From Archilochus colubris (taxonomy: Eukaryota > Chordata > Aves > Apodiformes > Trochilidae), in contig CM041107.1 in assembly GCA_023079485.1 (NCBI GenBank), forward strand, positions 6,654,657 to 6,718,656: a DNA stretch of 64,000 bases, in the 5' to 3' direction. Shown here one piece after another: positions 24,560 to 55,700 of this stretch. Below the pieces are notes generated by a model. It did not search any database. It saw nothing but the letters and a program-made list of their open reading frames with translations, and was not told the origin of the DNA. Numbering within the stretch: the first letter of the stretch is position 1; each line of letters starts with the position of its first letter. A program made the position numbers and the translations under genes.

Positions 24560-24720
24560 AAGGGCTCCAGCTGGGACTGGGGTAGCCCAGGTGTGGCCAG
24601 TCAGGTTGATGAGGGGCCTTTCCCAAGGGGCTGTGGGGAGGGCCCAGGGTATATAAGCCTCCACCTCTACTCAAGGGCTCAGTCTGCTTGGGAGTTGTGG
24701 TGTACTTGGAGCTCTACCAG
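24560..24720 (+). promoter_or_regulatory. TATA promoter and putative first exon of the repeat locus (P1)
   Basis: GGGTATATAAGCC places a TATA box at 24,650-24,657. Upstream, CCTTTCCCAAGGGGCTGTGG resembles the elements of the three promoters at 51.1-51.9 kb. A start about 30 bp downstream would give a first exon of about 35-40 nt ending CTCTACCAG|GTAAGAGG at 24,720. No conserved ATG is seen, so I infer a non-coding first exon. Transcription is not shown by sequence alone. Confidence 0.62.
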
Positions 24721-24808
24721 GTAAGAGGAGGAGGGCTGGGGGCTTTTGGCTGGTGCAGTAGTTGTTTGCTCTATCTTGGTATTCTTTGGTGGTTCCCTGA
24801 GTGGTAAC

Positions 24809-25274
24809 ATCTGTAGTGTTCAACTCTGGAATGAGAGAGTAAGTGGAACACTCAGGGGCTCTTTGGAGGACTTCAGCATTCTAAAAGAGGTTAGTGTTTA
24901 CTGATGTGGAACTTGGTGGTGGTACTGTTGGTTGGAATTTTTTCATGGCACATGATGAAGAGGAACCCTGTGGCTACAGGAATATCCCAGCCCTGTGATG
25001 TGTCTTTCCTTGTTGACCATGGCTTCAGGTGCCCAGCCCTCTGAAAGGTAAGTGGAACCAAGTGTGGGGAAGGGCTGGCCAGGGAGGGGGAAAGTTGAGA
25101 ATTGCAGGGAGGGGTTGGAAGTTAGTGTAGGGGAGAGGGCTGTCCAGGAGCAGCTCCCTTTGGTCAGGTGAAGGGACCGGGTTAGATTCCAACATGATGT
25201 GAATGTGGGCAGGGCAGCTCCAGCCTCTGTGTGTGGTGGTGTGTAGTTTCTGCTGTCTGTCTTTGTTGTCTTAG
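24809..25274 (+). repeat. Array unit U0: partial cassette (C-D) next to P1
   Basis: It holds a C-like module ending GAATGAGAGAG|TAAGTGG near 24,850 and a D module beginning ATGATGAAGAGGAAC at about 24,954. The D module ends CTGAAAG|GTAAGTGG, one of the few D copies with an intact GT donor. The linker to 25,274 carries GGGCAGGGCAGCTCCAGC, a block found ahead of each E module. Confidence 0.65.
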
Positions 25275-27397
25275 AGCTTTCTAAGGACTTGATGTCCTCG
25301 CTATGCTCACAGAGCAAGTCTTGCACCTTTGGCACCATCCCTATGCTCTGAAACACCTTATCAGCGCATTCAGTGATGCTTTGTCTTGCACAACAAATTC
25401 ACAACATGGAATGGTCTCGGGTATCAGCTTTCTCAAAGGTTGTTCTCTGACATGTTCTTCCTAACTATGTCAGCATCTCTAATTGTGGATTTTCTTAAAC
25501 TGGGACTGGTTCCCTGTATCCTTAGGTCTTGAATCCAGGCTTCTCATTTACCTGTCATCTAAGCTGAGAAAGTAGCTTCTTGTTCTTCAATGCTCTTGGG
25601 GCCACAATGGAGCCTCCATGTGTCACTGTTGCATCCCTGGATGTCTTCTAGCCCAGCTGTCTTGGATCCTGGAATCATTCATCTTCCTGTGAGTTTCTTC
25701 TTGAGGTCAAGTCTTGTGGGTTGCAGTGTTGTGTATTGGGTTGATCTCAGCACTGAGAGTTTGGTTTGGAGCTGCCCTGCCCATATGGTAGGGTCAAGGG
25801 TCCTTGGAAGAGTCTTAGTGGAATTGTCCATGTGTTCAGCAGCATTCAATAGAGCGAAGGTTGGTGGGCTGCAGGAGAAGCTATTTCTCAGGTGTTGTAT
25901 TGCTGTGGAAGGCATTGGCATCCCCTGTTTTTTGTGTTTTCTATGTGCCCTCCAAACCTCATTTGGGCACCTCACAAGGCTGGCAGGCAGATGGGTGAGG
26001 GGCCAAGGTAAAGGAGCAAGTGGGAGGTGGACATCATGGTGGTCTGCCTGTTGTTTTAGGCAGTATCTCTGCATGTGCTTTTCCTTTGACTTTTGCAGGT
26101 GCCACACAAAGCCATGTCTTGAGGAGCAGTTGGAGAAGGTGAGATGGTTGCTTGTTGGCTCATCCAGAGATTTTACATCAACTCGCTTAAGTGTTTCCCT
26201 TTGTTTTTGCAGGCGCTGCGTGTGCCACCTTTGGAGGCAGAAGAGCGCTGGAGTTGAGCCGGGATGGTAATGAGGAGGCTCAATCTCACAAGCAGAACAG
26301 GAATTTTGTGTCTCCTGGTATCTCAGGTGCCAGAAGCAATGGTGACCATAACGTGTGGAAAGAGAAGGTGAGCAGGACAAGACAGGGGTTATGAGGAGCT
26401 TGTGGAAGAAGTTGGTATTTAGCTGACATCCTATTTCTGGTGGCACTGCCGTTATTGCAAATGATGAGGAGGAACTTTGTGGTTTTGGGAAGATTTATGT
26501 CAGCTGATGCAGGTTACTTTTCTGTCCAGGGCTTCAGAGCCCAGATCTTTGAAAGATAAGAGAAAGGGAGGATGGTTGGGGAGGGTCTGTGTAGAGGGGT
26601 CAAGGTTAGGAATTACAAGGTTGGGTTTTAAAATTACTGTAGGGGAGTGGGCTGTCCAGAAGCAGTTCCCTTTGGGTGGTTGATGGGAGCCTGTCCCTTC
26701 CTGGCATGATGCTAGCAAGTTCCAAGAACTGAATGAGCATTGGAGGTGAGGTGGTAGTGCAGGGCTTGTGGACCTAGTGTCTTCTCTCAAGCACAACAAT
26801 AGTTTTGTGCCATTTAGGTGCCCTGAATGACGATGCCTACAGCATCCAACTCTGGAAAGTGTGGGTGAGTGGGACCCTGCAGGGCTCTTCTGCAAAGCTG
26901 TGTCATTTGGAAGAGAACGAGGCTGTCTGATGTTGGACTTATTGCTGAATATTCTGGTAGGTATGTTGGTGTTTTGGCTATGTGTGTGTGTGTTTTTGGG
27001 TTTGTTTGTTTTGGTATTGTGGTGTGACTGTTTTTATTACTTGTTTTTTATTTTTTTAAATGCAGGTGGTGAAGGGGAACCTAGCAAGTTGACGATTATC
27101 CCGAGCTGCTCCTGTTTTTTTTTTCCTGGCTAACTATGGCTTTGGAGTGCCAGTCCTCTGAAAGATAAGTTGAGGGCCCAGGGGTGGGTGGGGAGGGGCT
27201 GAGCAGAGGAGTCAAGGTTGGGAATTGCAGGTGGTGTTTCAAAGTTAGTGTAGGGGAGAGGGCTGTCTGGGAGCGGCCCCCTTTGGGTGGGTGAAGGGAA
27301 CAGGTTACTTTCCAGTATGATTCCAGCATGGGCAGGGCAGCTCCAGCGTTGGTGTGTGGGGTTGTGTGTTTTGTGTTGTCTGTCTTTGTTGCCTTAG
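25275..27397 (+). repeat. Array unit U1 (E-H-A-B-C-D-C'-D')
   Basis: The E module starts after GTCTTAG. F and G are absent or decayed. H begins near 25,950 (TGCCCTCCAAACC) and ends at GTAAAGG. Module A is 26,099-26,138 with acceptor TTTTGCAG and donor AAG|GTGAGA. A 74-nt intron follows, then B from 26,213 and C at 26,327-26,367. B has lost its usual GTGAGC donor (TTGAGC). The tail holds a diverged second C/D pair (C' near 26,819, D' near 27,066). Confidence 0.7.
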
Positions 27398-30298
27398 AAC
27401 TTCCTCAGGCCTTGATGGTCCTCTGTGTCCTCACAGAGCAAGTCCTTCATCTTGGGCATTGTCCCTGAAAAGCCTTTCCTGATCAGCACGGTGCTGATCA
27501 GCAGCGTGTTATTCTGCACGATGAGTCTAAATTGCAGATCGGTCTCTTGACTTGGAAGTTTCTTGATGATTGTCTTCTGCAACGTCATTCTCAATTGCAT
27601 TGTCATCTGATCTCTGTCCATCCAGTTTTCCTGAGTGGAACTCATTCCCCGCATCCTTGCGTCCTCAGGTCTTGAAGGTGGCTTCTCGAGCATCCGTTGC
27701 TTCATTCCCTCGCTTTGCAGACGCATCGGTGTAGGTCTTATTGCCCAAAAGTCTTGGATTCCAGAGTCCCTCATCTTGCTGCAAGTTTTATCTTGAGGTC
27801 AAGTCTTGCGACTCACATGGCTGTGTCTCCTTCTGTGGGTGTGAGTGTTTGGCTTGGAGCTGCCCCGCCTGCTGTGTAGGATCAGGGGCCATGAGAAGTG
27901 CCACAACCTGACTGACTTGGTGCTGAGCAGCTTCCCAGTGATCTGCATAATCCTGTTTTTCAGATCCCATGTGTCAATTACCAGCAAGAAGCAGATGGAG
28001 GAGGAGAGGAGGTCGCCATCCGAAGGTTGGTCAGGGTGTGGAGTTGGTGGGAAGGTGCCTCCCTTGGCTACCTGACCACTTTATGGTTTGTTGTCATTTT
28101 GAAGGTGGAAGCTGTGAGCAAAGCAGGATACGAGCACCGGAGGTGGCTGTAGCAAAGTGAGCAAAGGTTGGTGGGCTGGAGGAGCAGTTACTTCTCAGGT
28201 GCTGTATTATTGGTTGGTCATGAACATCCCTTGTTGTTTGTGGGTTTTTTTTTCAGGTGCCCTCCTAACCTCATTTTGGCACGCCAAGAGATGGCAGGCA
28301 GATGGATGAGAGGCTGAGGTAAAGGAGCAGGAGGTGGACGTCGCAGTGGCCTGGTTGTTGTTGGGGGCAATATCTCAGCGTGTGCCTTTTGCTTTGACTT
28401 TTGCAGGTGTCATACACAGTGCCAGAGTGTCAAAGCCATGTCCTGAGGAGCAGGTGGATAAGGTGAGATGTCTGTGGGCTGGGTCAACCATGTGTTAACA
28501 TCAACTCTGTAAAAGGTTTCCCTTATTTTTCAGGTGCTTTGCGTGCCACCTTTGGAACCGGATGAGCATTGAATGTGAGTGGGGGTGGTAGAGAATGGGT
28601 TCATGAAGCTGATGAGTACTGATCAGCAGAACAGTAGCTCTTTCTCTTGGTCTTTTAGGTGCCCAAAGCAGTGGTGGCCAAAGCATTCAACTCTGGATCA
28701 AGGAGGTGAGTGGAACAATGTGGGTCTCTTTTGAGGTGGTGGGTGTAGTATAAGTGGTTGTTGATGGCTGAAGCGCACCTTATTGGTGACACTGTTTCTG
28801 ATTTTCCTTTTTTTTCTGATTGCAGGTGATGAAGAGTAAGATGCCTGTCAGACAGTGTTGTGTTTTGCTGGACATAGATCCAAAAACACCGTCCCTCAGA
28901 AAGATAAGTTGAGGGACTGAACTGAAGTGCTGAGGTTGGGAGTTGTTGCAGAGGAGATGTTGAAGTTTTCTGAGTAAAGGCTGGTGTGGGCTGCTGTTGA
29001 TTGGGGCAGTAGCTCAGTATGTGGCTTTTCCTTTGACTTTTGCAGGTGCCACACAAAGCCACGTGTTGAGGAGTGGTCAGAGAAGGTGAGATGGTTGCGG
29101 GCTGCCTCATCCAGAGATTTTACATTGACTAGGTTAAGTGTTGCCTTTTGTTTTTGCAGGCACTGTGCGTGCCACCTTTGGAGCAGGAAGACCACTGGAG
29201 GTGAGCCGGGATGGTAACGAGGAGGCTTGATCTTGCAAGCAGAGCAGTAATTTTGTGTCTCCTGGTATTTCAGGTGCCAGATGCGATGGTGGCCATAACA
29301 TGTGTGGAAGGAAGAGGTGAGCAGGGCAAGCTGGGGGTCATGAGGAACTTGTGGAAGGGGTTGGTGTTTAGCTGACGTCTTATTTCTGGTGGCACTGCCG
29401 TTTGTTATTGCAGATGATGAGGAGGAACTTTGTGGTTTTGGGAAGATTCCCGTCAGCTGATGTGGCTTTACTTTTCTGGCCAGTGCTTCAGAGCCCCAGA
29501 TGTTTGAAAGGTAAGTGAAAGGGAGGAGGGTTAGGGAGGGTCTGTGTAGAGGGGTCAAGGTTTGGAATTACAAGGTTGGGTTTTAAAATTACTGTAGGGG
29601 AGTGGGCTGTCCAGAAGCAGTCCCCTTTGGGAGGTTGATGGGAGCCTGTCCCTCCCTGGCATGATGCTAGCAAGTTCCAAGAACTGAATGAGCATTGGAG
29701 GTGAGGTGGTAGTGCAGGGCTTGTGGACATAGTGTCTTCTCTCAAGCACAACAATAGTTTTGTGCCATTTAGGTGCCCCTGAATGATGATGCCTACAGCA
29801 TACAGCTCTGGAAAGCGTGGGTGAGTCCGCGAAGCTGGGTCATTTGGAAGGGAGCGGGGCTGGCCAATGTTGGACTTATTGCAGAATATTCTGATAGTTT
29901 TGGTGTTGTGATTATGTGTGTGTGTTTTTTGGTTTGTTTTGGTGTGACTTTTTTTGTTTTCTTATATTATTTTTAATTTTTTTAATGCAGGTGGCAAAGG
30001 GGAACCTTGCAAGTTGAGGATTATCCCAGGCTGCTCCTGTTTTTTTTTTCCTGGCTAATTATGGCTTTGGAGTGCCAGTCCTCTAAAAGATAAGTTGAGG
30101 AACCAGTGGTGTAGAGGGGTCAAGGCTGGTGGGAGTTGTGGAAGGGGTTTTGAAGTTAATGTAGGGGAGAGGGCAGTCTGGTCAGGTGAAGGAAGCGGAT
30201 TTATTTCTGATGCGATGCCAGTGTGGGCAGGGCAGCTCCAGCCTTGGAGCCTTGGTGTGTGGTGGTGTGTAGTTTGTGTTGTGTGTCTTTTGTCTTAG
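27398..30298 (+). repeat. Array unit U2 (E-F-G-H-A-B-C-D-A-B-C-D-C'-D')
   Basis: This is the fullest unit. E starts at 27,398 after GCCTTAG and contains a 23-bp near-perfect palindrome at 27,479-27,501. F follows TTTTTCAG at about 27,962. G is at about 28,104 and H at about 28,257. Modules A are at 28,407 and 29,046, with B at 28,534 and 29,160. The second D (near 29,414) keeps the donor GAAAG|GTAAGTG. Module order matches other units, so the cassette itself was duplicated internally. Confidence 0.72.
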
Positions 30299-32045
30299 AG
30301 CTTTCTCAGGCCTTGATGTCCTCTCGGAGCAAGTCCCGCATCTCGGGCATCATCCCTGGAAGGTCTTCTCTCATCAGCACAGTACTAGTCAGCAGCATCT
30401 TTTTCTTGCGTGACAAAATTGAAGTGTAGATAGGTCTTTCATCTGGGAAGTTTCCTGTTGGTCATCTTCTGAAACATCATCGCCAACGGCATCAGTGTCG
30501 TCTCTGGTTGTGGATTTTCCCAGAGTGTGACTTTGTTCCCCGCATCCTTGCGTCCTCAGGTCTTGAAGCCCGGGTTCTTTGGCATCCCTTGATTCAGCCC
30601 CTTGTTTTGCCGTTGCATTGCTGTAGGTTTTCTTGCCAAACAGTCTTGGATCCCAGAGATATTCTTCTTGCTCAGTCTTCTCTTGAGGTCCAAGTCTCAT
30701 CATTTGGAGTGCTGTGTCTCGAATTTGTCTGAGTGTTTGGCTTGGAGCTGCTCTTCCCAGAGTTTGTTGGAAGAGCCATAACTGAATAGTTCATCTGTTG
30801 GGCAGTGTTCCAGTGACTTGTGTCATACTGTTTTTCAGATTCTGCGTGACAAGGATGTACATGAAAGAGCTGGAGGAGAAAATAGTGCCGTCCAAAAGTT
30901 AGTCAGTGTATGGTGTTGGAGTGAAAGTCCCTCTCCTGGTTACCTGACCACATTATGGTTTGTTTGCTCGTTTGAAGGTGAGAGCAGCCAACGAAGCAGA
31001 ATATCTGTTCCTGAGGTTGCTCTGGCAAGGTGAGCAAAGGCTGGTGTGCTGAAGGAGCAGTTATTTCTCAGGTGTTTTATTGCCGTTGAAGGCATTGGCA
31101 TTGCCTGTTTTTTGTGTTTTCCAGGTGTCCTCCAAACCTACTTCTGGCACCTCACAAGGAGGGCAGGCAGTTGAGTGAGAGGCCGAGGTAAAGGGGCAGG
31201 AGGTGGACATTACAGTTGGACTGGATGTTGTTGTTGGAGGCACTACCTCAGCATGTGCCCTTTTCTTTGACTTTTGCAGATGCTGCAACCCTCCTTGGAG
31301 GGACAAAGACACGTTTAGGAGCAGTTGGAGAAGGTGAGATGGTGGTGGGCTGGGTCAGCCATGTATTTTACGTCAAGTTGCTTAAAAGTTTCCTTTTGTT
31401 TTTGCAGGTGCTGTGCGTGCCACGTTTGGAACCGGATGAGCGTTGAAGTTGAGCTCAGTTGGTAGCGAAGGGGTGCCTTGGGGCTGGTGACTTCTGATCA
31501 GCACAACAGGAACTCTTTTTCTTGGTGTTTCAGGTGCCCCAAGCAACAGTGGTGCTAGCATTCAACTCTGGAACAAGAATGTGCGTGGAATACCATGGGG
31601 CTTTCTTGAAGAGGTGAGTGCAGCGGAAGTAGCGTGCGTTGGCTTAGGTGGGACTTGTGCCAGCACTGTTCATGGTCTGTGGGTTGTGTTTTTTTCCTTT
31701 CTTTACTATGTATGCGGTATGAAGAGGAACCGTGCGACTGGAAGCGCATCCCAGTCAAAAAAAGCAGTTTTCCTTTACTGACCATGGCTTTGTGCTGCTG
31801 TTGCTCTTGAAGATAAGTTGATGGCCCAGGGGTGGGTGGGGAGGGGCTGAGCAGAGGAGTCGAGGTTGGGAATTGCAGGTGGTGTTTTGAAGCTAGTGTA
31901 GTGGAGAGGGCTGTCTGGGAGCAGCTCCCTTTGGGTGGGTGAAGGGAACAGGTTACTTTCCGGTATGATTCCAGCATGGGCAGGGCAGCTCCAGCCTTGG
32001 TGTGTGGGGTTGTGTATTCTGTGTTGTCCGTCTTTGTTGCCTTAG
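30299..32045 (+). repeat. Array unit U3 (single E-to-D cassette)
   Basis: Basic 1.75-kb cassette: E at 30,299 (a diverged subtype shared with U6), F near 30,839 after TTTTTCAG, G near 30,978, H near 31,125, A from 31,280, B from 31,408, C near 31,534, then D ending GAAGATAAGTTGA. Its E palindrome is degraded. Confidence 0.7.
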
Positions 32046-34399
32046 AGCTTCCTCAGGCCTTGGTGGTCCTCTGTGTCCTCACAGAGCAAGTCCTTCATCT
32101 TGGGCATTGTCCCTGAAAAGCCTTTCCTGCTCAGCACAGTGCTAATCAGCAGCATGTTATTCCACACGATGAGTCTAAATTGCAGATCAGCCTCTTGACT
32201 TGGAAGTTCCTTGATTGTCACCTTCTGAAACATCATTGCCAACTGCATCAGCATCTGGAGTCATTTCCCGCATCATGCGCCCTCAGGTCTTGAAGGCAGC
32301 TTCTTGGGCATCTTTTGCTTTGTTCCCTTGCTTTGCAGATGCATCACTCTAGGTCTTATTGCCCAAAAGTCTTGGATTCCAGACTCCATCTTGCAGCGAG
32401 TTTTATCTTGAGGTCAAGTCTTGTGACTCACATGGCTGTGTCTCGGGTTGGTCTGTGTGTGTGAGTGTTTGGCTTGGAGCTGCCCCGCCTGCTGTGTAGG
32501 ATCAGGGGCCATGAGAAGTGCCACAACCTGACTGACTTGGTGCTGAGCAGCTTCCCAGTGATCTGCATAGTCCTGTTTTTCAGATCCCATGTGTCAATTA
32601 CCAGCAAGAAGCAGACAGAGGAGGAGAGGAGCTGCCATCTGAAGGTTGGTCAGGGTGTGGAGTCGCTGGGAAGGTGCCTCCTTTGGCTACCCAACCGCAT
32701 TATGGTTTGTTGTCATTTTGAAGGCGGAAGCGGTGAGCAAAGCAGGCTACGGGCACCGGAGGTGGCTGTGGCAAGGTGAGCAAAGGCTGGTGGGATGAAG
32801 GAACAGTAATTTCTCAGGTGTTGCATTGTCCGTTGGTCATGAGCATGCCTTGTTGTTTGTGTTTTTTTTCAGGTGCTCTCCTAACCTCATTTTGGCACGC
32901 CAAGAGATGGCAGGCAGATGGGTGAGAGGCTGAGGTAAAGGAGGCAGAGGTGGACATCGCTGTGGGCTGGTTGTTGTTGGGGGCAATATCTCAGCGTGTG
33001 CCTTTTTGCTTTGATTTTTGCAGGTGTCACACAGTGCCAGAGTGACAAAGCTGTGTCTTGAGGAGCAGTTAGAGAAGGTGAGATGGCTGTGGGCTGGGTC
33101 AGCTGTGTATTAACGTCAACTCTGTAAAAGGTTTCCCTTATTTTTCAGGTGCTGTGTATGCCACCTTTGGAACCGGATGAGCATTGAAGGTGAGCTGGGG
33201 TGGTAGAGAGTGGGTTCATGGAGCTGGTGACTACTGATCAGCAGAACAGTAGCTCTTTCTCTTGGTCTTTTAGGTGTCCAAAGCAGTGGTGGCCACAGCA
33301 TTCAACTCTGGATCAAGTCTTGTGACAAGGAGGTGAGTGGAACTGGGTGGAGCTCTTTTGAGGTGGTGGGTGCAGTATAAGTGGTTGTTGATGGTTGAAG
33401 TGCACCTTATTGGTGACACTGTTTCTGATTTTCCTTTTTTTTTCTGATTGCAGGTGATGAAGAGGACCATGCCCGTCAGACAGCGTGGTGTTTTGCTGGA
33501 CATAGATCCAAAAACACCATCCATCAGGAAGATAAGTTGAGGGGCCAAAGTGAAGTGCTGAGGTTGGGACTTGTTGCAGAAGGGGTGTTGCAACGGCTGG
33601 TGTGGGCTGCTGTTGATTGGGGCAATATGTCGGCAAGTGTCTTTTCCTTTGACTTTTGCAGATGCCACACAAAGCCATGCGTTGAGGAGCGGTCAGAGAA
33701 GGTGAGATGGTGGTGGGCTGGGTCAGCCATGCATTTTACGTCAAGTCGCTTAAACATTTCCTTTTGTTTTTGCAGGTGCTGTGCGTGCCACGTTTGGAAC
33801 CAGATGAGCGTTGAAGTTGAGTTGGTAGTGAGGGGTTCATGGGGCTGGTGACTTGTGATCAGCAGAACAGGAACTGGTTCTCCTGGTGTTTCAGGTGCCC
33901 CAAGCAATGGTGGTGATAGCGTTCAACTCTGGAATGAGAAGGTATGTGGCATACCATGGAGCTTCCTTGAGGAGGCGAGTGCAACAGAAGTAGTGTGCGT
34001 TGGCTTAGGTGGGACTTGTGCCAGTGCTGTTTGTGATCTGTGGGTTGTGTTTTTTTCTTTTGTATGTATAGGGGATGAAGAGAAACCTGCAACTGGAAGC
34101 ACATCCCAGTCAAACACTGTGGTTTTCATTACTGACCATGGCTTTGTGCTGCTATCACTCTTGAAGATAAGTTGAGGGCCCAGGGGTGGGTGGGGAGGGG
34201 CTGAGCAGCGGAGTCGAGGCTGGGAATTGCAAGTGGTGTTTTGAAGTTAGTGTAGGGGAGTGGGCTGTCTGGGAGCGGCCCCCTTTGGGTGGGTGAAGGG
34301 AACAGGTTACTTTCCAGTATGATTCCAGCATGGGCAGGGCAGCTCCAGCCTTGGTGTGTGGGGTTTTGTGTTTTGTGTTGTCTGTCTTTGTTGCCTTAG
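32046..34399 (+). repeat. Array unit U4 (E-to-D plus extra A-B-C-D)
   Basis: E is at 32,046, F at about 32,584, G near 32,725, H near 32,873. A copies start at 33,024 and 33,662, B copies at 33,149 and 33,776, C copies near 33,275 and 33,896. The stretch 33,697-34,399 belongs to a recent near-identical duplication that recurs at +4,637 bp. Confidence 0.72.
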
Positions 34400-37309
34400 A
34401 GCTTCCTCAGGCCTTGGTGGTCCTCTGTGTCCTCACAGAACAAGTCTTGCATCTTGGGCATCATCCCTGCAAAGCCTTTCCTGATCAGCACAGTGCTGAT
34501 CAGCAGCATCTTCTGCATGACAAGTCAAAATTTCAGATTGGTCTCTTGACTTGGAAGTTTCTTGATGGCTGTCTTCTGCAATGTCATTCTCAATTGCATT
34601 GTCATCTGATCCCTGTCCGTCCAGTTTCCCTGAGCAGGAGTCATTCCCCGCATCCTTGCATCCTCAGGTCTTGAAGGCGGCTTCTCGGGCATCCGTTGCT
34701 TCATTCCCTCGCTTTGCAGGCGTATCTCTGTAGGTCTTATCGCCCAAAAGTCTTGGATTCCAGAGTCCCTCTTCTTGCTGCGAGTTTTATCTTGAGTTCA
34801 AGTCTTTTGACTCACAAGACTTGTGATTTGAGTCAGTCTGTGCATGTGAGTGTTTGGTTTGGAGCTGCCCTGCCTGCTGTGTGGGATCAGGGGCCATGGG
34901 AAGCACCGTAACCTGACTGTCTAGTTGTTGAGCAGCTTTCCAGTGACTTCCATAATCCTGTTTTTCAGATCCTACTTGTCAATGACTAGCAAGAAACTTG
35001 AGGGAGGAGGAGAGGAGGCTGCCACGCAAAGGTTGGTCAGGGTATGGAGTCAGTGGGAAGGTGCCTCCCTTGGCTACCTGACCACGTTATGGTTTGTTGT
35101 CATTTTGAAGGCGGAAGCGGTGAGCAAAGCGGGATACGGGTACTGGAGGTGGCTGTGGCAAGGTGAGCAAGGGCTGGTGGGCGGGAGGAGCAGTTACTTC
35201 TTGGATGCTGTATTATTGGTTGGTTATGAGCATCCCTTGTTGTTTGTGGTTTTTTTCAGGTGCCCTCCTAACCTTGTTTTGGCACCCCAAAGAGGTGGCA
35301 GGCAGATGGATGAGAGGCTGAGGTAAAGGAGCAGGAGGAGGACGTCACAGTGGCCTGGTTGTTGTTGGAGGCAATATCTGAGTGTGCCTTTTGCTTTGAC
35401 TTTTGCAGGTGTCACACACAGTGCTGGAGTGACAAAGCCATGTCTTGAGCAGGTGGAGAAGGTCAGATGTCTGTGGGCTGGGCCAGCCATGTATTAACAT
35501 CAACTCTGTAAAAGGTTTCCCTTATTTTTCAGGTGCTGTGTGTGCCACCTTTGGAACATGGCTCTATTGCTTTGCTCCACTTTAGAGCATTGAATGTGAG
35601 TGGGGGTGGTAGAGAGTGGGTTCATGAAGCTGGTGACTATTGATCAGCAGAACAGTAACTCTTTCTCTTGGTCTTTTTAGGTGCCCAAAGCAGTGGTGGC
35701 CAAAGTGTTCAACTCTGGATCAAGGAGGTGAGTGGAACAATGTGGGTCTCTTTTGAAGTGGTGGGTGCAGTATAAGCGGTTGTTGATGACTGAAGTGCAC
35801 CTTACTGGTGACACAGTTTCTGATTTTCCTTTTTTTCTGATTGCAGGTGATGGAGAGGAACATGCCCGTCAGACAGCGTGGTGTTTTGCTGGACATAGAT
35901 CCAAAAACACCATCCCTCAGAAAGATAAGTTGAGGGACTGAACTGAAGTGCTGAGGTTGGGAGTCGTTGCAGAAGGGGTGTTGCAACGGCTGGCGTGGGC
36001 TGCTGTTGATTGGGGCAATATCTTGGCATGTGGCTTTTCCTTTGACTTTTGCAGATGCCACACAAAGCCATGCGTTGAGGAGCGGTCAGAGAAGGTGAGA
36101 TGGTTGTGGGCTGGCTCATCCAGAGATTTTACGTCGACTCGGTTAAGATGCTGTGCGTGCCACCTTCGGAGCCGGAAGAGCGCTGGACGTGAGACGGGAT
36201 GGTAACGAGGAGGCTCGATCTCGGAAGCAGAACAGTAATTTTGTGTCTGCTGGTATTTCAGGTGCCAGAAGCGATGGTGGCCATAACATGTGTGGAAGGA
36301 GAAGGTGAGCAGGGCAAGTCGGGGATTATCAGGAGCTTGTGGGAGAGGTTGGTATTTAGCTGACATCCTATTTCTGATGGTACTGCTGTTTGTTATTGCA
36401 GATGATGAGGAAGAACTTGGTGGTTTTGGGAAGATTCCCGTCAGCTGATGTGGGTTACTTTTCTGTCCAGTGCTTCAGAGCCCCAGCTATTTGAAAGGTT
36501 AAGTAAAAGGGATGATGGGTGGGGAGAGTCTGTGTAGAGGGGTCAAGGTTAGGAATTGCAGGGTTGGGATATCAAAGTTAGTGTAGGGGAGTGGGCTGTC
36601 CAGAAGCGGTGCCCTTTGGGTGGTTGATGGGAGCCTGTCCCTCCCTGGCATGATGCTAGCAAGTTCCAGGAACTGAATGAGAATTGGAGGTGAGGTGGTA
36701 GTGGAGGGTTTGTGGACATAGCGTCTTCTCTCAAGCACAACAATAGTTTTGTGCCTTTTAAGTGCCGTGAATGACAACGCCTACAGCATCCATCTCTGGG
36801 AAGCGTGGGTGAGTCTGCGAAGCTGGGTCATTTGGAAGGGAGCGGGGCTGGCCAATGTTGGACTTATTACAGAATATTCTGATAGGTGTTTTGGTGTTGT
36901 GGTTATGTGTGTGGGGTTTTTTGGTTTGTTTTGGTGTTGTGGTGTGACTTTTTTTGTTTTTATTTTTTAAAAATTATTTTTAACTTTTAATTTTTTAAAA
37001 ATTTTTTTAAATGCAGGTGGTAAAGGGGAACCTTGCAAGTTGAGGATTATCCCGGGCTGCTCCTGTTTTTTTTTCCTCGCTAACTATGGCTTTGGAGTGC
37101 CAGTCCTCTGAAAGATAAGTTGAGGGACCAGTGGTGTAGAGAGGTCAAGGCTGGTGGGAGTTGTGGAAGGGGTTTTGAAGTTAATGTAGGGGAGAGGGCA
37201 GTCTGGTCAGGTGAAGGAAGCGGGTTAATTTCTGATGCAATGCCAGTGTGGGCAGGGCAGCTCCAGCCTTGGTGTGTGGTGGTGTGTAGTTTGTGTGTCT
37301 TTGTCTTAG
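34400..37309 (+). repeat. Array unit U5 (double cassette with C'-D')
   Basis: It has the same module order as U2. E is at 34,400, A copies start at 35,409 and 36,055, B at 35,533. The second B (near 36,149) has lost its pyrimidine tract and acceptor: the intron runs from GACTCGGTTAAG straight into ATGCTGTGCG. That copy probably cannot splice there. C' is near 36,762 and D' near 37,018. Confidence 0.7.
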
Positions 37310-39036
37310 AGCTTCCTCAGGCCTTGATGTCCTCTCGGAGCAAGTCCCGCATCTTGGGCATCATCCCTGAAGGTCTTCTCTCATCAGCACAGTACTAGTC
37401 AGCAGCATCTTGCGTGACAAAATTGAAGCGTAGATAGATCTTTCATCTGAAGAGTTTCCTGTTGGTCATCTTCTGAAACATCATCGCCAACGGCATCAGT
37501 GTCGTCTCTGGTTGTGGATTTTCCCAGAGTGTGACTTTGTTCCCTGCATCCTTGCTTCCTCAGGTCTTGAAGCCTGGGTTCTTTGGCATCCCTTGATTCA
37601 GCCCCTTGTTTTGCAGTTGCGTTGCTGTAGGTCTTCTTGCCAAACAGTCTTGAATCCCAGAGATATTCTTCTTGCTCAGTGTTCTCTTGAGGTCCAAGTC
37701 TCATCATTTGGAGTGCTGTGTCTCGAATTTGTCTGAGTGTTTGGCTTGGAGCTGCTCTTCCCAGAGTTCGTTGGAAGAGCCATAACTGAATAGTTCATTT
37801 GTTGGGCAGTGTTCCAGTGACTTGTGTCATACTGTTTTTCAGATCCTGTGTGACAAGGATGTACATGAAAGAGCTGGAGGAGTGAAGAGCACCATCCAAA
37901 GGTTAGTCAGGGTTTGGTGTTGGACTGGAGGTCCCTCTCCTGGCTACCTGACCACATTATGGTTTGTTTGCTCGTTTGAAGGTGAGAGCAGCCAACAAAG
38001 CAGGATATTTGTTCTGGAGGTGGCTCTGGCAAGGTGAGCAAAGGCTGGTGTGCAGAAGGAGCAGTCATTTATCAGATGTTGTATTGCCATTGAAGGCATT
38101 GGCATCCCCTGTTTTTTGTGTTTTCCAAGTGTCCTCCAAACCTACTTTTTCCATCTCACAAGGATGGCAGGCAGCAGATGGGTGAGAGGCTGAGGTAAAG
38201 GAGGAGGAGGTGGACATCACAGTGGGCTGCCTGTTGTTGGAGGCACTACCTCAGCATGTGCCTTTTGCTTTGACTTTTGCAGTTGCCACAACCATCCTTG
38301 GAGGGACAAAGACACACATTTAGGAGGGGCTGGAGAAGGTGAGATGGTGGTGGGCTGGGTCAGCCATGCATTTTACGTCAAGTCGCTTAAACATTTCCTT
38401 TTGTTTTTGCAGGTGCTGTGCGTGCCACGTTTGGAACCGGATGAGTGTTGAAGTTGAGTTGGTAGTGAGGGGTTCATGGGGCTGGTGACTTGTGATCAGC
38501 AGAACAGGAACTGGTTCTCCTGGTGTTTCAGGTGCCCCAAGCAACGGTGGTGATAGTGTTCAACTCTGGAATGAGAAGGTACGTGGCATACCATGGAGCT
38601 TCCTTGAGGAGGTGAGTGCAACAGAAGTAGTGTGCGTTGGCTTAGGTGGGACTTGTGCCAGTGCTGTTTGTGATCTGTGGGTTGTGTTTTTTTCTTTTGT
38701 ATGTATAGGGGATGAAGAGAAACCTGCAACTGGAAGCACATCCCAGTCAAACACTGTGGTTTTCATTACTGACCATGGCTTTGTGCTGCTATCACTCTTG
38801 AAGATAAGTTGAGGGCCCAGGGGTGGGTGGGGAGGGGCTGAGCAGCGGAGTCGAGGCTGGGAATTGCAAGTGGTGTTTTGAAGTTAGTGTAGGGGAGTGG
38901 GCTGTCTGGGAGCGGCCCCCTTTGGGTGGGTGAAGGGAACAGGTTACTTTCCAGTATGATTCCAGCATGGGCAGGGCAGCTCCAGCCTTGGTGTGTGGGG
39001 TTTTGTGTTTTGTGTTGTCTGTCTTTGTTGCCTTAG
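37310..39036 (+). repeat. Array unit U6 (single cassette, sister of U3)
   Basis: E at 37,310 is of the U3 subtype. F follows TTTTTCAG at about 37,842, G near 37,982, H near 38,130, A from 38,283, B from 38,413, C near 38,533. From 38,334 onward it is almost identical to U4 sequence 4,637 bp upstream. Confidence 0.72.
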
Positions 39037-40960: not shown

Positions 40961-40962
40961 GC

Positions 40963-41115: not shown

Positions 41116-41499
41116 GTGAAGGAGGTTGTTGCAAAAGAGGTTTGTCAACCCATACGATTCCTCTGGATGCTTCCTGCTGGCACTCTGCTTTGTGGAAGAT
41201 GAAGACGAGCCTGGTGATTGCAGAAATATACCAGCTACCTGATATACCTTTTCTTGAGGAAGGAATCTGATCCCTGGCCTGCTGCAAGCTGAGCTGGGAG
41301 GCCAGGAACAACTGACCTTCAGCATGAATATTGATATAAGACGGGAAGAGAGAGTCCAAAACAGAAATGCCTCTCATTCAAAGATGTTGCATTTTGGAAA
41401 CTGCTCTGAGGGGGAGTCTGTGGAAGAGTCTGTGGAAGTCAGCAGCAACAAGACTCTTTCCTCCTTCAAAAAAAAAGAAAGTCATTCTCAAGATGGAAG

Positions 41500-41877: not shown

Positions 41878-41880
41878 AAA

Positions 41881-47850: not shown

Positions 47851-47885
47851 CATGAATACACAAACACATATATTACATTAGCCCG

Positions 47886-50566: not shown

Positions 50567-51059
50567 CTGGCGTCTCACAGCCGTCTTCTGGCTCTGTTGC
50601 ACATTTTACACCTTTTTCGCTCCACGAGAACCTCTTCTGAAACCGTCTGTCATTTGGTTCCCAACATCCCAGGGACACCTGTACTTTATTCAAATTCCCT
50701 CCAGACTGCTGCTTGTGCCCCTCAGCTTTCTTCAGTGTCTTTGATCCAAAAATGACCCCTCTAACAGAACAGTGCCTTCCAGGTTGCCTTTAGTACGCTT
50801 TTAGCTTTGTTGCAGAGCTCTCACCCCTCTGAGTCTTTCAGGGGACTTTTTGAGTCCATATCTGTGACCCACCCCACTTGTTCTTTCCTCCTTTCTGTCT
50901 AATCCAAGCCTCCAACAACCTTTACTCTGTTAACATTCTCTAGGGGTTGAATTCTTACCTGGTCATGTTGCTGAAACAACAAAAAGATAGAAAAAACCCA
51001 AAATTCCTCAGCCAGCATCATAGACCTCTGCTTGTCCTGTAAACTGAAGAAAGGGGAGA
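50567..51059. other. Spacer between solo LTR and tandem promoters
   Basis: No gene is supported. Sequence is T/C-rich and not obviously repetitive. Confidence 0.5.
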
Positions 51060-51069
51060 AAACTGACTG

Positions 51070-51288
51070 CTTCTCCTCTGGCTGCTTTTATACCTTGTGG
51101 TAATTGCTACCTCCCCTTTCTCAGGGGATTGTGGGAAAATCTGTGGGCGGTGCCTGTGGTATATAAGACACAGCCTTTGGCTAGGGGCTTCAGTCAGCTC
51201 CTGGGCTTCTCTGAAGTTAGAGCTCTCCTTCTCCTGTAGCCGAGGGCAGCTATGGAGCCGTTTGGACTGATCAAGAAGACTCTTCAAG
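51070..51288 (+). promoter_or_regulatory. Tandem promoter/first exon copy 1 (P2)
   Basis: TATATAAG at 51,160-51,167, preceded by CCCCTTTCTCAGGGGATTGT and GGGAAAATCTG. A start about 30 bp downstream, near GGCTTCAGTCAGC, would give an exon of about 100 nt ending CTTCAAG|GTAAGAAC at 51,288. An ATG in this copy (51,252) is not kept in the other two copies, which argues for a non-coding exon. Confidence 0.66.
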
Positions 51289-51398
51289 GTAAGAACTTTA
51301 GAACCACTTAAAGATAGTGCTCTTTATAACAAGAATATTGTTGCATGCAAGCATCTGTGCTTGTCATGTAAACTGAAGATGAAAGAAAAAACTGATGG

Positions 51399-51617
51399 CT
51401 TCTCCCCTGGCTGGTTTTATACCTTGTGGCAATTGCCACTTCCCCTTTCCTAGGGGATTGTGGGAGAGGCTGTGGGTGGTGCTTGTGGTATATAAGCCAC
51501 AGCCTTTGGCTAGGGGCTTCAGTCAGCTCCTGGGCTTCTCTGAGGTCAGAGCTCTCCTGCTCCTGGAGCTGAGGGCAGCTGTTGAGCTGCATGGACTGTC
51601 TGAGAAGACTCTTCAAG
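51399..51617 (+). promoter_or_regulatory. Tandem promoter/first exon copy 2 (P3)
   Basis: TATATAAG at 51,489-51,496, exactly 329 bp after copy 1. The upstream block is CCCCTTTCCTAGGGGATTGT. The donor CTTCAAG|GTAAGAAC is at 51,617. Confidence 0.68.
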
Positions 51618-51727
51618 GTAAGAACTTTAGAACCACCAAATGATAACGCTCTTTATAGCAAGGATATGGTTGCATGCAAGTGTCTGTGCTTGTCATGTAA
51701 ACTGAAAATGAAAGAAAAACCTGATGG

Positions 51728-51946
51728 CTTCTCCCCTGGCTGGTTTTATACCTTGTGGTAATTGCCACTTCCCCTTTCCTAGGGGATTGTGGGAGAGGCT
51801 GTGGGTGGTGCTTGTGGTATATAAGCCACAGCCTTTGGCTAGGGGCTTCAGTCAGCTCCTGGGCTTCTCTGAGGTCAGAGCTCTCCTGCTCCTGGAGCTG
51901 AGGGCAGCTGTTGAGCTGTCTTGGCTCTTTGAGAAGACTCTTCAAG
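51728..51946 (+). promoter_or_regulatory. Tandem promoter/first exon copy 3 (P4)
   Basis: TATATAAG at 51,818-51,825, again 329 bp on. The donor CTTCAAG|GTAAGAAC is at 51,946. The next module (D-like) follows AATTGCAG at 52,038, so a short first intron of about 90 nt is possible. Confidence 0.68.
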
Positions 51947-52035
51947 GTAAGAACTTTAGAACCACCAAAAGGTAGAGCTCTTTATAGCAAGAATATTGTT
52001 GCATGCATGTTTTGTTTTTTTTTTTTTTTTAATTG

Positions 52036-54082
52036 CAGTTGTTGATGAGGAAGCTTAGAACTGCAGAAACATGCTCGTCAGCCACCGTGGTTTTGTTACT
52101 GGACATAAATTTAGACCCACAGCCCTCTGAAAGCTAAGTACAGGAACTTGGTTCCAGAGGGGCTGAGGCTTGGAGTTGCAGGAGGGGTTTTGACGATGGC
52201 ATCTGGGTGACGGCTGTCTATAATCAGCCCCCTTTGAGTGGGAGAATAGAGTATGATACTTTCCAGCACAATGCTAGGGTGGGCAGGGCAGCTCTAGCCT
52301 TGGTGTGTGGGGTTGTGTATTTTATGTTGTCTGTCTTTGTCTTGATGGTCTTCTGTGTCCTCACAGAGCAAGTCTTGCATCTTGGGCATCATCCCTGCAA
52401 AGCCTTTCCTGATCAGCACGGTGCTGATCAGCAGCATCTTCTGTATGACAAGTCAAAATTGCAGATCGGTCTCTTGACTTGGAAGTTTCTTGATGATTGT
52501 CTTTGGCGATGTCATTCTCAATTGCATTGTCATCTGATCTCTGCCCATCCAGTTTCCCTGAGGGGGACTCATTCCCCGCATCCTTGCATCCTCAGGTCTT
52601 GAAGGCGGCTTCTCAGGCATCTGTTGCTTCATTCCTTCGCTTTGCAGACGCATCGCTGTAGGTCTTATTGCCCAAAAGTCTTGGATTCCAGACTCCCTCA
52701 TCTTGCTGCAAGTTTTATCTTGAGTTCAAGTCTTGTGACTCACATGGCTGTGTCTTGGGTCAGTCTGTGCATGTGAGTGGTTGGCTTGGAGCTGCCCTGC
52801 CTGCTGTGAAGGATCAGGGGCCATGGGAAGCACCAAAACCTGACTGACTCAGTGTTGTGTGGCAGTCCAGTAACTTGCGTAATCCTGTTTTTCAGATCCC
52901 ACAAGTCAAGGATGAGCAAGAACTGGATGGAGGAGGAGACAAGGGAAGCAGCCGAAGGTTGGTCAGGGTGTGCAGTTGGTGGGAATCTGTCTCTCTTGGC
53001 TATCTGACCACATTATGGTTTGTTGTCCTTTTGAAGGCGGAAGCAGCGAATGAAGCGGGATACGGACACCGGAGGTGGCTGTGACAAGGTGATCCAAAGC
53101 TGTTGGGCTGGAGGAGCAGTTACTTCTCGGGTGTTGTATTGTCGGTTAGTCATGAGCATCCCCTGTTTGTGTTTTTTTTTCTTTTTCAGGTGCCCTCCTA
53201 ACCTCATTGTGGCCCCCCAAAGAGATGGCAGGCAGATGGGTGAGGGGCAAAGGTAATGGAGCAGGAGAGGGATGTCACAGTGGCCTGGGTGTTGTTGGAG
53301 GCAATATCTCAGCGTGTGCCTTTTTCTTTGACTTTTGCAGGTGTCGCACACAGTGCCGGTGTGACAAGGCCATGTCTCGAGGAACAGTTGGAGAAGGTGA
53401 GATGGCTGTGCACAGAGTCGTTCACATATTTTATGTCAACTCGGTTAAATGTTTCCCCTTTTTTTGCAGGCGGTGTGCATCCTACCTTTGGGAACGGATG
53501 ACCATTGAAGGTGAGGTGTTAGAGAGCGGGTTCATGCAGCTTGTGGTGGTTGATCAGCAGAACAGTAACTCTCTCTCTCTCTTGTTCTTTTAGGTGCCCA
53601 AAGCAGTGGTGGAGACAGGATTGAGCTCTGGATCAGGAAGGGGAGAAGAATGCTGTGGGACTCTTCTGAGGCCTCTTCTTTGTAGTGTAAGTGTTTGTAG
53701 ATGGCTGAAGCAGTCCTAACTGGTGACATGGAATCTGATTTTTTCCTTTTTTTTTTTTCTTCTGATTGCAGATGATGAACAGGAACATGTATACTGAAGC
53801 AACATGCCTGTCAGACGATGTGGTGTTTGCTGCTGGACATAGGTTCAGAACCCCAGCTCTCAGAAAGATAAGTTGAGGGACTGAATCGTCGAGGGGTTGA
53901 GGTTGGGAGTTGCCGGAGGGATTTTGAAGTTGCTTTCTGGGAGAGGGCTGTCTGGGAGTAGCTCCCTTTGCGTGCCTAAGCGGAGCAAGTTAGTTTCTGG
54001 CACAATGCTAGCGTGGGCAGGGCAGCTCCAGCTTCAGTGTCTGGGGTTGTGTGTTTTGTGTCATCCATCTTTGTTGTCTCAG
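52036..54082 (+). repeat. Array unit U8 (D, then E-to-D) behind P2-P4
   Basis: A D-like module follows TTGCAG at 52,038 and ends CTCTGAAAGCTAAGT. E (from about 52,341) has lost its first acceptor by a deletion of about 20 bp but keeps the palindrome near 52,407. F follows TTTTTCAG near 52,896. G is near 53,037 and H near 53,190 after TTTTTCAG. A starts at 53,341, B at 53,470, C near 53,595, D near 53,772. Confidence 0.7.
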
Positions 54083-55700
54083 GCCTTGATGGTCCTCTGT
54101 GTCCTCAGAGAGCAAGTCCTGCATCTTGGGCATCATCCCTGCAAAGCCTTTCCTGATCATCACGGTGCTGGTCAGCAGCGTCTTCTTCTTGCGTGACAAA
54201 TGCAAACCGTAGATTGGTCTTCCCTCTTGGAAGTTTCTTGACGGTCATCTTCTGAAACATCATTGCCACTTGCATCGGCATCTCTGGTCATAGATTTTTC
54301 TTGGATCGGAAATCGATCCCCACGTCCTCGTGTCCTCAGGTCTTGAAGTCCGTGCTTTTGGCATCCATCGCTTCATTTCCTAGCTTCGCAGTCACAGCGG
54401 GTGACTGTGGGTCTTCTTGCCGAGCAGTCTTGGGTGCTGGAGATGTGCTTCTTGCTTGGTATTCTTTTGACATGGTCTCATGGTTTGCAGGGTTGTGTCT
54501 TGTTTCTTTGAGTGTTTGGCTTGGAGCTGCCCTGCCTGTAGTTGTAGGGTCAGGGATTGTTGGAAGGGCGCTAAAGGGAATCTTCCAGGTGTTGAGTAGC
54601 ATTTCAGTGACTTGTGTAATCCTGTTTTTCAGATCCCACAAGTCAAGGATGAGGATGAAGTGGATGGAGGAGGAGAAGACAAGGGCACCAGCTGAAGGTT
54701 AGTCGGTGTTTGGTGTGGGTGGGAATGTGCTGTCAATATTTATAAGTATTTCTGAGATTAATTTATTTCTTTCAGAAGCGGAATTCCAGGACATGGCATA
54801 AAAAGCAGAGGAGGTGCGTAGCTGAATGTCATAACAGGGCTTGGTAAAGTCTGTCATAGGGCAGGTGGATGTAGTTGCTCTATGAGTAGCACTAATGGAT
54901 TTTTTTTTCTTATCTTGCAAAGGTGTGTAGAGCAGGTGATTCATCTCACTGGGAGAAGAAATTTGGAAGGTGAGTGCAGTGAAATTGACTGCTGGAAGTG
55001 TAAAATGTTATGAGTATTATTCACGTAAAAAACATTACCTGTGTGTTTTTTTCAGGTGGTGCCTCAGCATCCAGTTCATACTAACATGCCTGAGGGGCAT
55101 CTGGCGAAGGATTGAGGTAAAGGAGATTGGGCAATTCTTTGGGAGGGTTTTGTTAGAAGTAGCAGTATATTACAAATTGCCTTTCTCTTTTCAGGTGCCA
55201 TGAACAGCCATTGAGATGTCAGGAAGTACACCCATCAGCTGCTTAAGAAGGTGAGATGCTAGTAAGCTGTTTCAGTGAGTAAGATCAAAGTCCTTGACTG
55301 CTCGTTAAAGCATTTTCCTTTGTTTTTGCAGATGCTGTCCTGGCCATTGTTGGACTTGGCTGAGCCTTTGAGGTGAGGTGGAGTGGTTGGAACAACAAGG
55401 ATCATTTTAAGGAGCACAACAGTAATTTTGTCTCTTGGTCTTCTAGGTGACAGAAGCACGGTGTCTCTGAGGAGCGTGTTGACTGAGGACAGCGTGCTGT
55501 TCGAGCAGTCGGTGACGGTAGAAAGGACGCCATAGGATTCTGCACGGTTTATGGAGAACCATCTTCGGGGAGAGCATCTGAACCTGTGCCTTTTCATCTC
55601 ACAAACTGTTTCCATGACAGCGCTATGTTGTATTTCATCTGTGCATCCTTCAGGGTTTCAGTCTCAAAGCCCATCAGGTAACAAATCTGTTTATCTGGTG
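54083..55700 (+). repeat. Array unit U9 (most diverged cassette)
   Basis: E follows GTCTCAG at 54,083 and F follows TTTTTCAG near 54,634. G is near 54,777 and H near 55,056 (TTTTTTCAG, ends GATTGAG|GTAAAGG). A is from 55,195 (donor AAG|GTGAGA), B from 55,332 and C near 55,447. Bodies differ much from other units, yet the splice-signal positions and the order are kept. Confidence 0.66.

What the first reader, a model, noticed from the sequence alone, without database searches (positions are those of the whole stretch)
24560..55700. Unrecognised MACF1-adjacent locus built from a tandemly duplicated multi-exon cassette
At least nine units repeat the same order of exon-like modules (E-F-G-H-A-B-C-D, sometimes with an extra A-B-C-D and a C'-D' pair). 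Modules A, B and C are about 40-47 nt, bounded by TTTTGCAG-type acceptors and AAG|GTGAG donors, with introns of about 75-100 nt. Even the most diverged unit (54.1-55.7 kb) keeps the splice-signal positions. Module reading frames do not stay open when joined, so I infer a spliced long non-coding RNA whose exon set was amplified. The architecture recalls repeated host transcripts such as the SNORD115/116 locus, but I could not find a convincing snoRNA in it.
Basis: partly seen in the sequence, partly recalled or inferred. Interest (0 to 1): 0.88.

Follow-up and report, generated by a model that had tools for sequence, protein, structure and literature searches.

The report
Chromosome-end tandem-exon noncoding RNA genes
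In this bird genome, many chromosome ends carry what looks like the same spliced, non-protein-coding RNA gene built from repeated tiny exons and pointing toward the telomere, which gives a concrete candidate for the RNA made at bird chromosome ends.

Summary
The tandem exon-like array is real, but it is not a MACF1-specific locus. The window ends 887 bp from the end of a 6.72 Mb contig, and the array belongs to a subtelomeric family. Parts lie within 110 kb of 25 contig ends; in 24 the splice strand points outward. The window has TATA + initiator promoters at 24.65 kb and, tripled, at 51.16-51.82 kb. The distal unit runs promoter, cassette exons, tail repeats, two hairpin-rich 3' elements, tandem poly(A) signals. 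It recurs in the same order at the start of 7.8-Mb contig C23. On C17 the poly(A) block lies 3 kb from (CCCTAA)n. Splice dinucleotides are intact in 0.84 of copies against 0.61 for other AG/GT (14 sites, 37 of 50,000 permutations as high), although the D donor is mostly lost. Exon indels ignore frame; no protein match was found. Best reading: telomere-directed, spliced, polyadenylated ncRNA genes. Their role (perhaps terminal RNP aggregates of oocyte chromosomes) is inferred; a neutral subtelomeric passenger remains possible. No RNA data were available.

The parts
24650..24720 (+). Promoter P1: TATATAAG at 24650, initiator-like TCAGTC (A at 24681), first exon to 24720 with donor CAG|GTAAGAGG
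   Evidence: Read directly. Core aligns to P2 with score 31 against maxima of 26 and 25 in two controls. Relatives at the starts of C15, C12 and C5: TATA kept in 2 of 3, TCAGTC and GT donor in 3 of 3
24792..41288 (+). Proximal cassette array (C, D, H, A, B, C, D ... to a diverged last unit F, G, B, D at 40.2-41.3 kb)
   Evidence: Profile hits and exon table; strand-specific splice sites; 7-kb duplication, 27121-32387 against 34123-39405 at 88%
51026..52010 (+). Promoter P2: three 329-bp copies, each with TATATAAG (51160, 51489, 51818), TCAGTC 32 nt on, and a first exon ending CTTCAAG|GTAAGAAC (ends 51288, 51617, 51946)
   Evidence: In 8 copies (window 3, C23 3, C3 2) TATA-to-initiator varies in 1 of 39 columns and the donor in 0 of 15, against 71 of 275 elsewhere, Fisher p = 8e-6 over columns
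52039..55477 (+). Distal cassette array: D, F-G-H-A-B-C-D, F, then a diverged last unit with A', B', C'
   Evidence: same order at the C23 start with one more F-G-H-A-B-C-D cassette
55922..60776 (+). Tail: T-rich unique stretch (56.3-57.1 kb) and tandem repeats of 22, 65 and 24 bp; probably intronic to the last acceptors (inference)
   Evidence: same kinds of repeat at C16, C7 and C17 starts
60956..61168 (+). 3' structured element T-alpha: acceptor CTTTTCAG|GTACTT, AATAAA at 60976, 21-bp hairpin with U-rich loop, long GC stem, third hairpin
   Evidence: Fold z = -6.3. Found at 8 contig ends, in each paired with T-beta
61348..61562 (+). 3' structured element T-beta, with its own acceptor CCCTTTCAG|GTACTT and AATAAA at 61369
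   Evidence: Fold z = -5.3. 40-column windows of the core are 0.93-1.0 identical to T-alpha, the acceptor window 0.82, flanks 0.28-0.62
61823..62095 (+). Tandem poly(A) signal block: 69 bp x 4, two AATAAA each (8 in all), each copy with TGTGTTTT after them
   Evidence: same block at C6, C7, C16, C17, C18, C23 starts and C21 end
62265..64000 (+). 20-bp pyrimidine satellite; runs about 0.5 kb past the window to an inverted repeat near the contig end
   Evidence: same satellite between the poly(A) block and telomere-like repeats at C16 and C17 starts

Best explanation
This is a subtelomeric, multi-chromosome family of noncoding RNA genes. RNA polymerase II starts at TATA + initiator promoters (three tandem copies in the distal gene), reads toward the telomere through a tandemly amplified set of 40-100 nt exons separated by near-minimal introns, splices them, and ends in one of two hairpin-rich 3' exons or at a block of eight AATAAA signals about 3 kb short of the telomeric repeats (distance from C17). 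Shown from sequence: the anatomy, its recurrence near contig ends, near-uniform orientation, constraint on splice sites and core promoter, no sign of coding. Inferred: that it is transcribed, chiefly in the germ line, and that the amplified splice sites and structured 3' end make the nascent RNA a chromosome-end scaffold that gathers splicing factors; [quoted passage not shown] Rough probabilities: transcribed and spliced gene family 0.85; noncoding 0.9; role as a terminal RNP scaffold 0.3.
For: Location: the window ends 887 bp from the end of contig C25. Module C has 40 scored matches (307 candidates, so a lower bound); 25 of 40 lie within 110 kb of a contig end, where at most 3.6% of the genome lies, and 24 of those 25 point to the nearest end. 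Of 24 contig starts read to 10 kb, 13 hold family parts, all pointing to the start (C20 by two short matches only). Merging both lists gives 25 distinct ends, 24 outward. C17 start: (CCCTAA)201, degenerate repeats, 20-bp satellite, poly(A) block, T pair. Distal gene in the same order at C23. Splice dinucleotides, all 14 sites: window 0.855 against 0.629 (142 controls, 28 of 50,000 permutations as high); with the fetched loci 0.841 against 0.612 (145 controls, 37 of 50,000). Earlier runs that lost the D donor (and, one C site) gave 0.906 against 0.626, 0 of 20,000, and 0.894 against 0.606, 0 of 50,000. Promoter core. Noncoding: exon indels mod 3 (0/1/2) 34/51/37; no Pfam match at E 1 in 10 of the 11 array ORFs of 150 aa or more; no homologous protein for two translations. 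Strand asymmetry: GC skew +0.24, AT skew -0.20 in the arrays, near 0 in MACF1 and 41.3-50.9 kb. No AATAAA or ATTAAA from 24560 to 40714 (about 4.5 expected from base composition, my arithmetic).
Against: No RNA evidence at all. Uniform orientation is expected if chromosome ends exchange segments, so it is not evidence of function. 12 of 40 module-C matches lie more than 500 kb from an end (C28, C33, C13, C5), one C13 match is reversed, and the match on 60-kb contig C121 points away from the nearer end. The D donor is GT in only 0.19 of window copies and 0.15 of all copies; B lost GT in 4 of 12 and H lost AG in 2 of 7, so many cassettes would not splice fully. Exon bases alone have AT skew +0.10, against the array trend. 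P1's relative at C5 has lost its TATA box. 11 of 24 contig starts show no cassette, promoter, T or poly(A) match in their first 10 kb, and only 4 of 24 starts show telomere-like repeats (C14, C16, C17, C18; C14 lacks the family). The C25 end itself shows no telomeric repeat. T-element pairs show no two-sided compensation, and likeness of the two T cores could come from gene conversion. The GITERA link rests on position and published composition only.
Confidence: 0.7

Rival explanations
1. Neutral passenger: a once-active gene or fragment copied among chromosome ends by subtelomeric exchange. It may still be transcribed but serves nothing, like duplicated noncoding genes near human telomeres (recalled).
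For: An interchromosomal bias of subtelomeric duplication is reported for birds (PMC13431229, passages); it alone would give multi-chromosome spread and uniform orientation. Several copies are damaged.
Against: Splice dinucleotides and the core promoter vary less than the rest of the same alignments, and the T core is kept while its flanks are not.
Confidence: 0.35
2. TERRA-type transcription: these are promoters and upstream exons of telomeric-repeat RNA, with read-through past the poly(A) block into the telomere.
For: Orientation and distance to telomeric repeats fit.
Against: Eight AATAAA signals and a pyrimidine satellite stand between gene and telomere; no tandem TTAGGG array was reported between P2 and the poly(A) block, although each 69-bp copy holds a single TTAGGG.
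Confidence: 0.1
3. Germ-line small-RNA (piRNA) precursor locus.
For: One-stranded, repeat-rich, with an endogenous retroviral gag frame between the two units.
Against: The gag frame lies in the sense direction of the array, so read-through would not make antisense small RNAs; conserved short-exon splicing is not required for a precursor (inference).
Confidence: 0.06
4. Protein-coding gene with many short repeated exons, decayed or still used in some copies.
For: Spliced unit 30839-31812 has a 125-codon stop-free stretch, reached by 1 of 200 shuffles; 25945-26555 has 92 (5 of 200); 32584-34166 has 101 (16 of 200). B-C-D reads alike in several units.
Against: Only 34 of 122 pairwise exon indels are multiples of three; diversity is about flat across codon positions (lowest p 0.048, in D, of 7 families); no protein match.
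Confidence: 0.05
5. A mobile or satellite element that happens to contain splice-like motifs.
For: Tandem, multi-copy, with internal copies on C28, C33, C13 and C5.
Against: No inverted repeats in the array region and no Pfam match in the array ORFs searched; the order promoter, exons, 3' end next to chromosome ends is gene-like.
Confidence: 0.05

Closest known systems
GITERA / terminal giant loops and telomere bow-like loops of avian lampbrush chromosomes
   Same: Chromosome-terminal, RNA-rich, at transcribed loci; passages read describe GITERA as SC35 domains, with poly(A)+ RNA and p54nrb/NONO in pigeon (PMC7151628), and on chicken chromosome 4 (PMC10268536). This fits a spliced, polyadenylated terminal gene.
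   Different: These are cytological structures; no sequence is named for GITERA in the passages I read. The link is inference.
LL2R lumpy-loop repeat RNA of chicken chromosome 2
   Same: Tandem-repeat-derived noncoding RNA that forms lumpy loops, which appear as SC35 domains (PMC7151628, passages).
   Different: Chromosome 2 only in the passages read; here a promoter-exon-3' end gene near many chromosome ends.
PO41 subtelomeric repeat RNA of chicken and quail
   Same: Subtelomeric noncoding RNA in birds (PMC4301066, passages).
   Different: A 41-bp repeat transcribed on both strands, with no snRNA interaction on lampbrush loops; here long, one-stranded by its signals, with conserved splice sites.
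TERRA (recalled definition)
   Same: Subtelomeric promoters, transcription toward the telomere.
   Different: Defined by UUAGGG repeats in the RNA; here tandem poly(A) signals precede the telomere.
SNORD115/116 host transcripts; FIRRE (both recalled)
   Same: Noncoding transcripts with tandemly duplicated exons.
   Different: No snoRNA match here; those are single loci, not chromosome-end families.

Membership tests
Spliced Pol II noncoding RNA gene | Promoter, splice sites and 3' end signals on one strand | tested here: met
   the D donor is mostly lost
Spliced Pol II noncoding RNA gene | Transcript actually made and spliced | not testable with these tools
   No RNA data held
Spliced Pol II noncoding RNA gene | No conserved reading frame | tested here: met
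   Indels mod 3 (0/1/2) 34/51/37; about flat codon positions; no protein matches; some long stop-free units
Subtelomeric duplicated gene family | Copies at many chromosome ends in one orientation | tested here: met
   24 of 25 contig ends within 110 kb outward; telomeric repeats seen beside the family at C17, C18 and, as variants, C16
TERRA | RNA contains telomeric repeats | tested here: inconclusive
   Telomeric repeats lie beyond the poly(A) block in DNA; read-through cannot be judged
TERRA | Transcription directed to the telomere | tested here: met
   By splice and promoter strand only
SNORD115/116-type snoRNA host | snoRNAs in introns | tested here: not met
   0 Rfam matches at gathering score in the window; proximal array at E 1: 2 sub-threshold, non-snoRNA
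LL2R / GITERA-forming RNA | RNA found in the terminal or lumpy RNP domain of oocyte chromosomes | not testable with these tools
   Needs RNA FISH
MALAT1-like triple-helix 3' end (features recalled) | U-rich motifs clasping a 3' A-rich tract, with a tRNA-like RNA after it | tested here: not met
   ARAGORN finds no tRNA-like gene; no Rfam match at gathering score. U-rich and A-rich tracts exist but pair in a simple hairpin

The most novel reading that the evidence does not exclude
A previously undescribed class of chromosome-end gene: a telomere-directed, multi-promoter lncRNA whose splice sites were amplified so that each chromosome tip makes a spliceosome-loaded, structured, polyadenylated RNA. 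That RNA nucleates the terminal RNP aggregates of bird oocyte chromosomes and keeps transcription from running into the telomere.
Probability: 0.28. Interest if true: 0.9.

Novelty: new variant of a known kind. Interest (0 to 1): 0.72.

Why it matters
If true, it supplies a sequence, a promoter and a probe for transcription at bird chromosome ends, which the passages I read describe by microscopy. The identity of the terminal RNP aggregates would become directly testable by RNA FISH. It would also be a natural case of selection on splicing itself: exon bodies are less alike between copies than the introns beside them (0.65 against 0.71 mean pairwise identity) while most splice sites are kept.

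Tried and rejected
SnoRNA, miRNA, tRNA-like: Rfam on the whole window, 0 matches at gathering score. In 60.7-62.2 kb, 35 matches up to E 5, all below their gathering scores; the best is a bacterial cis-regulator at E 0.0002 on the minus strand, 36.8 against 100 bits; I put these down to the long hairpin. Proximal array 2 sub-threshold matches. ARAGORN 0.

Coding: joined-exon translations, frame and indel tests, Pfam on 10 of the 11 array ORFs of 150 aa or more, one PDB search with one match at E 0.35, two protein searches with no hit.

Single transcription unit from 24.7 to 62 kb: my first model. Dropped in part when the tripled P2 promoter was found at 51 kb. Where the proximal unit ends is open: AATAAA at 40715, or read-through.

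Related loci elsewhere: four exact-pattern scans of viral contigs found nothing.

Literature: 10 searches. No listed title or abstract start described a spliced subtelomeric ncRNA gene family in birds. PMC11061957 reports many newly annotated, mostly protein-coding, chicken genes in subtelomeres (passages), so annotated relatives cannot be ruled out. The library lacks most subscription journals. Papers were seen only as passages found by term, never whole.

A genome-wide count of T elements and promoters was wanted, but the genome search answered only once.
Full report
Observation. Profile searches with one seed per module recovered A 11, B 12, C 15, D 16, F 8, G 7 and H 7 copies in the window, all on the + strand, between 24.7-41.3 and 52.0-55.5 kb. 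In the alignments acceptors and donors keep register while exon bodies have mean pairwise identities of 0.55-0.83. Strong splice-like sites are confined to the + strand: 30 donors and 17 acceptors against 0 and 0 in the proximal array (site frequencies recalled). 27121-32387 and 34123-39405 are 88% identical and a 1.2 kb pair is 96% identical, so amplification was repeated.

Promoters. At 24650 a TATATAAG is followed by TCAGTC (A 31 nt on) and a donor. At 51026-52010 a 329-bp unit is present three times, each with TATATAAG, TCAGTC 32 nt on, and a first exon ending CTTCAAG|GTAAGAAC. The two core promoters align with score 31, against at most 26 for 200 random pieces of 1-22 kb and 25 for 200 shuffles. 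In eight P2 copies from three contigs, TATA-to-initiator varies in 1 of 39 columns and the donor in 0 of 15, while 71 of 275 other columns vary (Fisher p = 8e-6; columns and copies are not independent). Relatives of P1 lie at the starts of C15, C12 and C5; the one at C5 has lost the TATA box. So I read two transcription units, proximal and distal. Between them, 41.3-51.0 kb holds an endogenous retroviral gag frame (Gag_p24) and other sequence with no strand skew.

3' end. Downstream of the distal array come a T-rich stretch and 22-, 65- and 24-bp tandem repeats, then two copies of a 213-215 nt element (T) that begin at acceptors, hold an AATAAA, and fold better than 200 of 200 shuffles (z -6.3 and -5.3). 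Then comes a 69-bp x 4 block with eight AATAAA, and a pyrimidine satellite that runs past the window's end. In 40-column windows the two T copies are 0.93-1.0 identical in the core, 0.82 at the acceptor and 0.28-0.62 in the flanks; constraint or gene conversion would both explain this. Across 16 T copies from eight contig ends (11 distinct), 10 of 67 predicted pairs vary, each on one side only, and every cell still pairs. No two-sided change exists and the structure was derived from these same sequences, so the support for the structure is weak.

Chromosome-end family. The genome search, answered once, places the window at C25:6,654,657-6,718,656; C25 is 6,719,543 long. The last 887 bp hold no telomeric repeat, so that this is a chromosome end rests on comparison with other contigs. 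Module C gave 40 scored matches out of 307 candidates: 25 within 110 kb of a contig end, 3 at 110-500 kb, 12 further in. Of the 25, 24 point to the nearest end; the exception is mid-way on 60-kb contig C121. At most 3.6% of the genome lies within 110 kb of a contig end. I read the first 10 kb of 24 contigs (C5, C7, C16, C17; 20 more). Family parts are present in 13 (C3, C5, C6, C7, C12, C13, C15, C16, C17, C18, C19, C20, C23; C20 by two short matches), all toward the start. The T pair with poly(A) block occurs in 6 (C6, C7, C16, C17, C18, C23). The other 11 show no cassette, promoter, T or poly(A) match; C2 and C10 had weak matches to the satellite or the terminal inverted repeat. Adding the far ends (C2, C3, C12, C14, C15, C17, C21, C22, C25, C26, C161) gives 24 distinct ends, all outward, or 24 of 25 if C121 is counted. 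Telomere-like repeats were seen at 4 of 24 starts (C14, C16, C17, C18), three of them with the family. C17 begins with (CCCTAA)201, then degenerate telomeric repeats, the 20-bp satellite, and the poly(A) block at 4229-4662, about 3 kb from the repeats. C23 carries the distal gene in the same order, with one more F-G-H-A-B-C-D cassette than the window. The end of C21 carries the T pair and poly(A) block in the + orientation. MACF1 is named by recall from its C-terminal sequence ending at 22019; a spectrin repeat matches Pfam at 9.1-9.7 kb. I did no full gene annotation between MACF1 and the end. The gag frame has 101 relatives among the 7,999 candidates scored; the hits named after a host are birds, one is named Retroviridae sp., some carry no name; best 64% identity over 54% of the query. 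So the genome is a bird's; the species was not identified.

Selection on splicing. With all 14 annotated AG/GT sites, the dinucleotide is intact in 0.855 of window copies against 0.629 for the other 142 AG/GT of the same references (28 of 50,000 permutations as high), and in 0.841 against 0.612 (145 controls, 37 of 50,000) when copies from the fetched loci are added. Two earlier runs gave 0.906 against 0.626 (13 sites, 0 of 20,000) and 0.894 against 0.606 (12 sites, 38 sequences, 331,774 bases, 0 of 50,000). They had dropped the D donor, and one C site, through gaps at the dinucleotide, which favoured my reading. The D donor is kept in only 0.19 and 0.15 of copies, below its controls (0.42 and 0.41), so D is probably not spliced as an internal exon in most copies. 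Exon bodies are less alike than adjacent introns (0.646 against 0.714). This is the pattern expected if splicing rather than exon sequence is kept. The caveats: I chose the families by their splice motifs in one copy, and copies are related by duplication.

Coding. Pairwise exon indels are spread over length classes (34, 51, 37 for 0, 1, 2 mod 3). Diversity by codon position is about flat (lowest p 0.048 in D and 0.082 in B of seven families). Against my reading, some spliced units have long stop-free stretches: 125 codons in 30839-31812 (1 of 200 shuffles as long), 92 in 25945-26555 (5 of 200), 101 in 32584-34166 (16 of 200). No protein relative was found.

How it most likely works. Shown: anatomy, recurrence, orientation, constraint on promoter core and most splice sites. 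Inferred: polymerase II starts at the TATA promoters, splices many short exons, and stops at the poly(A) block before the telomere. The strand asymmetry (GC skew +0.24, AT skew -0.20 in the arrays; +0.26/-0.35 in the unique tail; near zero in MACF1 and the middle segment; exons alone AT +0.10) fits long germ-line transcription, though composition near splice sites would also contribute. In bird oocytes, chromosome ends carry giant terminal RNP aggregates that appear as SC35 domains and, in pigeon, hold poly(A)+ RNA and NONO (PMC7151628, passages). A many-intron, polyadenylated terminal gene is a natural source. I rate this role at about 0.3, and a neutral passenger of subtelomeric exchange at about 0.35; birds are reported to favour interchromosomal subtelomeric duplication (PMC13431229, passages).

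Verdict. Transcription itself remains to be shown.

Noticed in passing
window 45300-46868: A 66-bp x 24 array carries 45 ACTTCCGG and 44 AAGATGGC motifs (ETS- and YY1-like by recall), a dense potential promoter or enhancer array between the two units.
   Followed up: partly
window 41880-43626: Endogenous retroviral stretch: a lysine-tRNA-like primer site (recalled) and an open gag frame matching Gag_p24, with avian relatives. Described only.
   Followed up: partly
L009 541-640; also C16, C7, C17, C6, C18 starts: A near-perfect inverted repeat of about 100 bp lies between the 20-bp satellite and the outer side at each of these ends.
   Followed up: no
L013 1240-1771: Degenerate telomeric repeats just inside (CCCTAA)201 read TTAGGG-like on the same strand, i.e. 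inverted relative to the terminal array.
   Followed up: no
L027 4043-5568: On C18 the telomeric repeats start 4 kb inside the contig, so sequence lies outside them: assembly join or interstitial array.
   Followed up: no
G000 C28:3.32-3.33 Mb, C33:35.47 Mb, C13:21.69-21.77 Mb, C5:3.48 Mb: Internal copies of module C, perhaps former chromosome ends after fusion or inversion.
   Followed up: no
window 40970-41090: A stretch that reads like an avian CR1 3' end (recalled) at the edge of the proximal array.
   Followed up: no
window 20942-21660: Long polypyrimidine tract just upstream of the last MACF1 coding exon.
   Followed up: no
window 61823-62095: Each copy of the 69-bp poly(A) unit holds one TTAGGG hexamer (GGTTAGGGACC) just before its AATAAA pair.
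   Followed up: no
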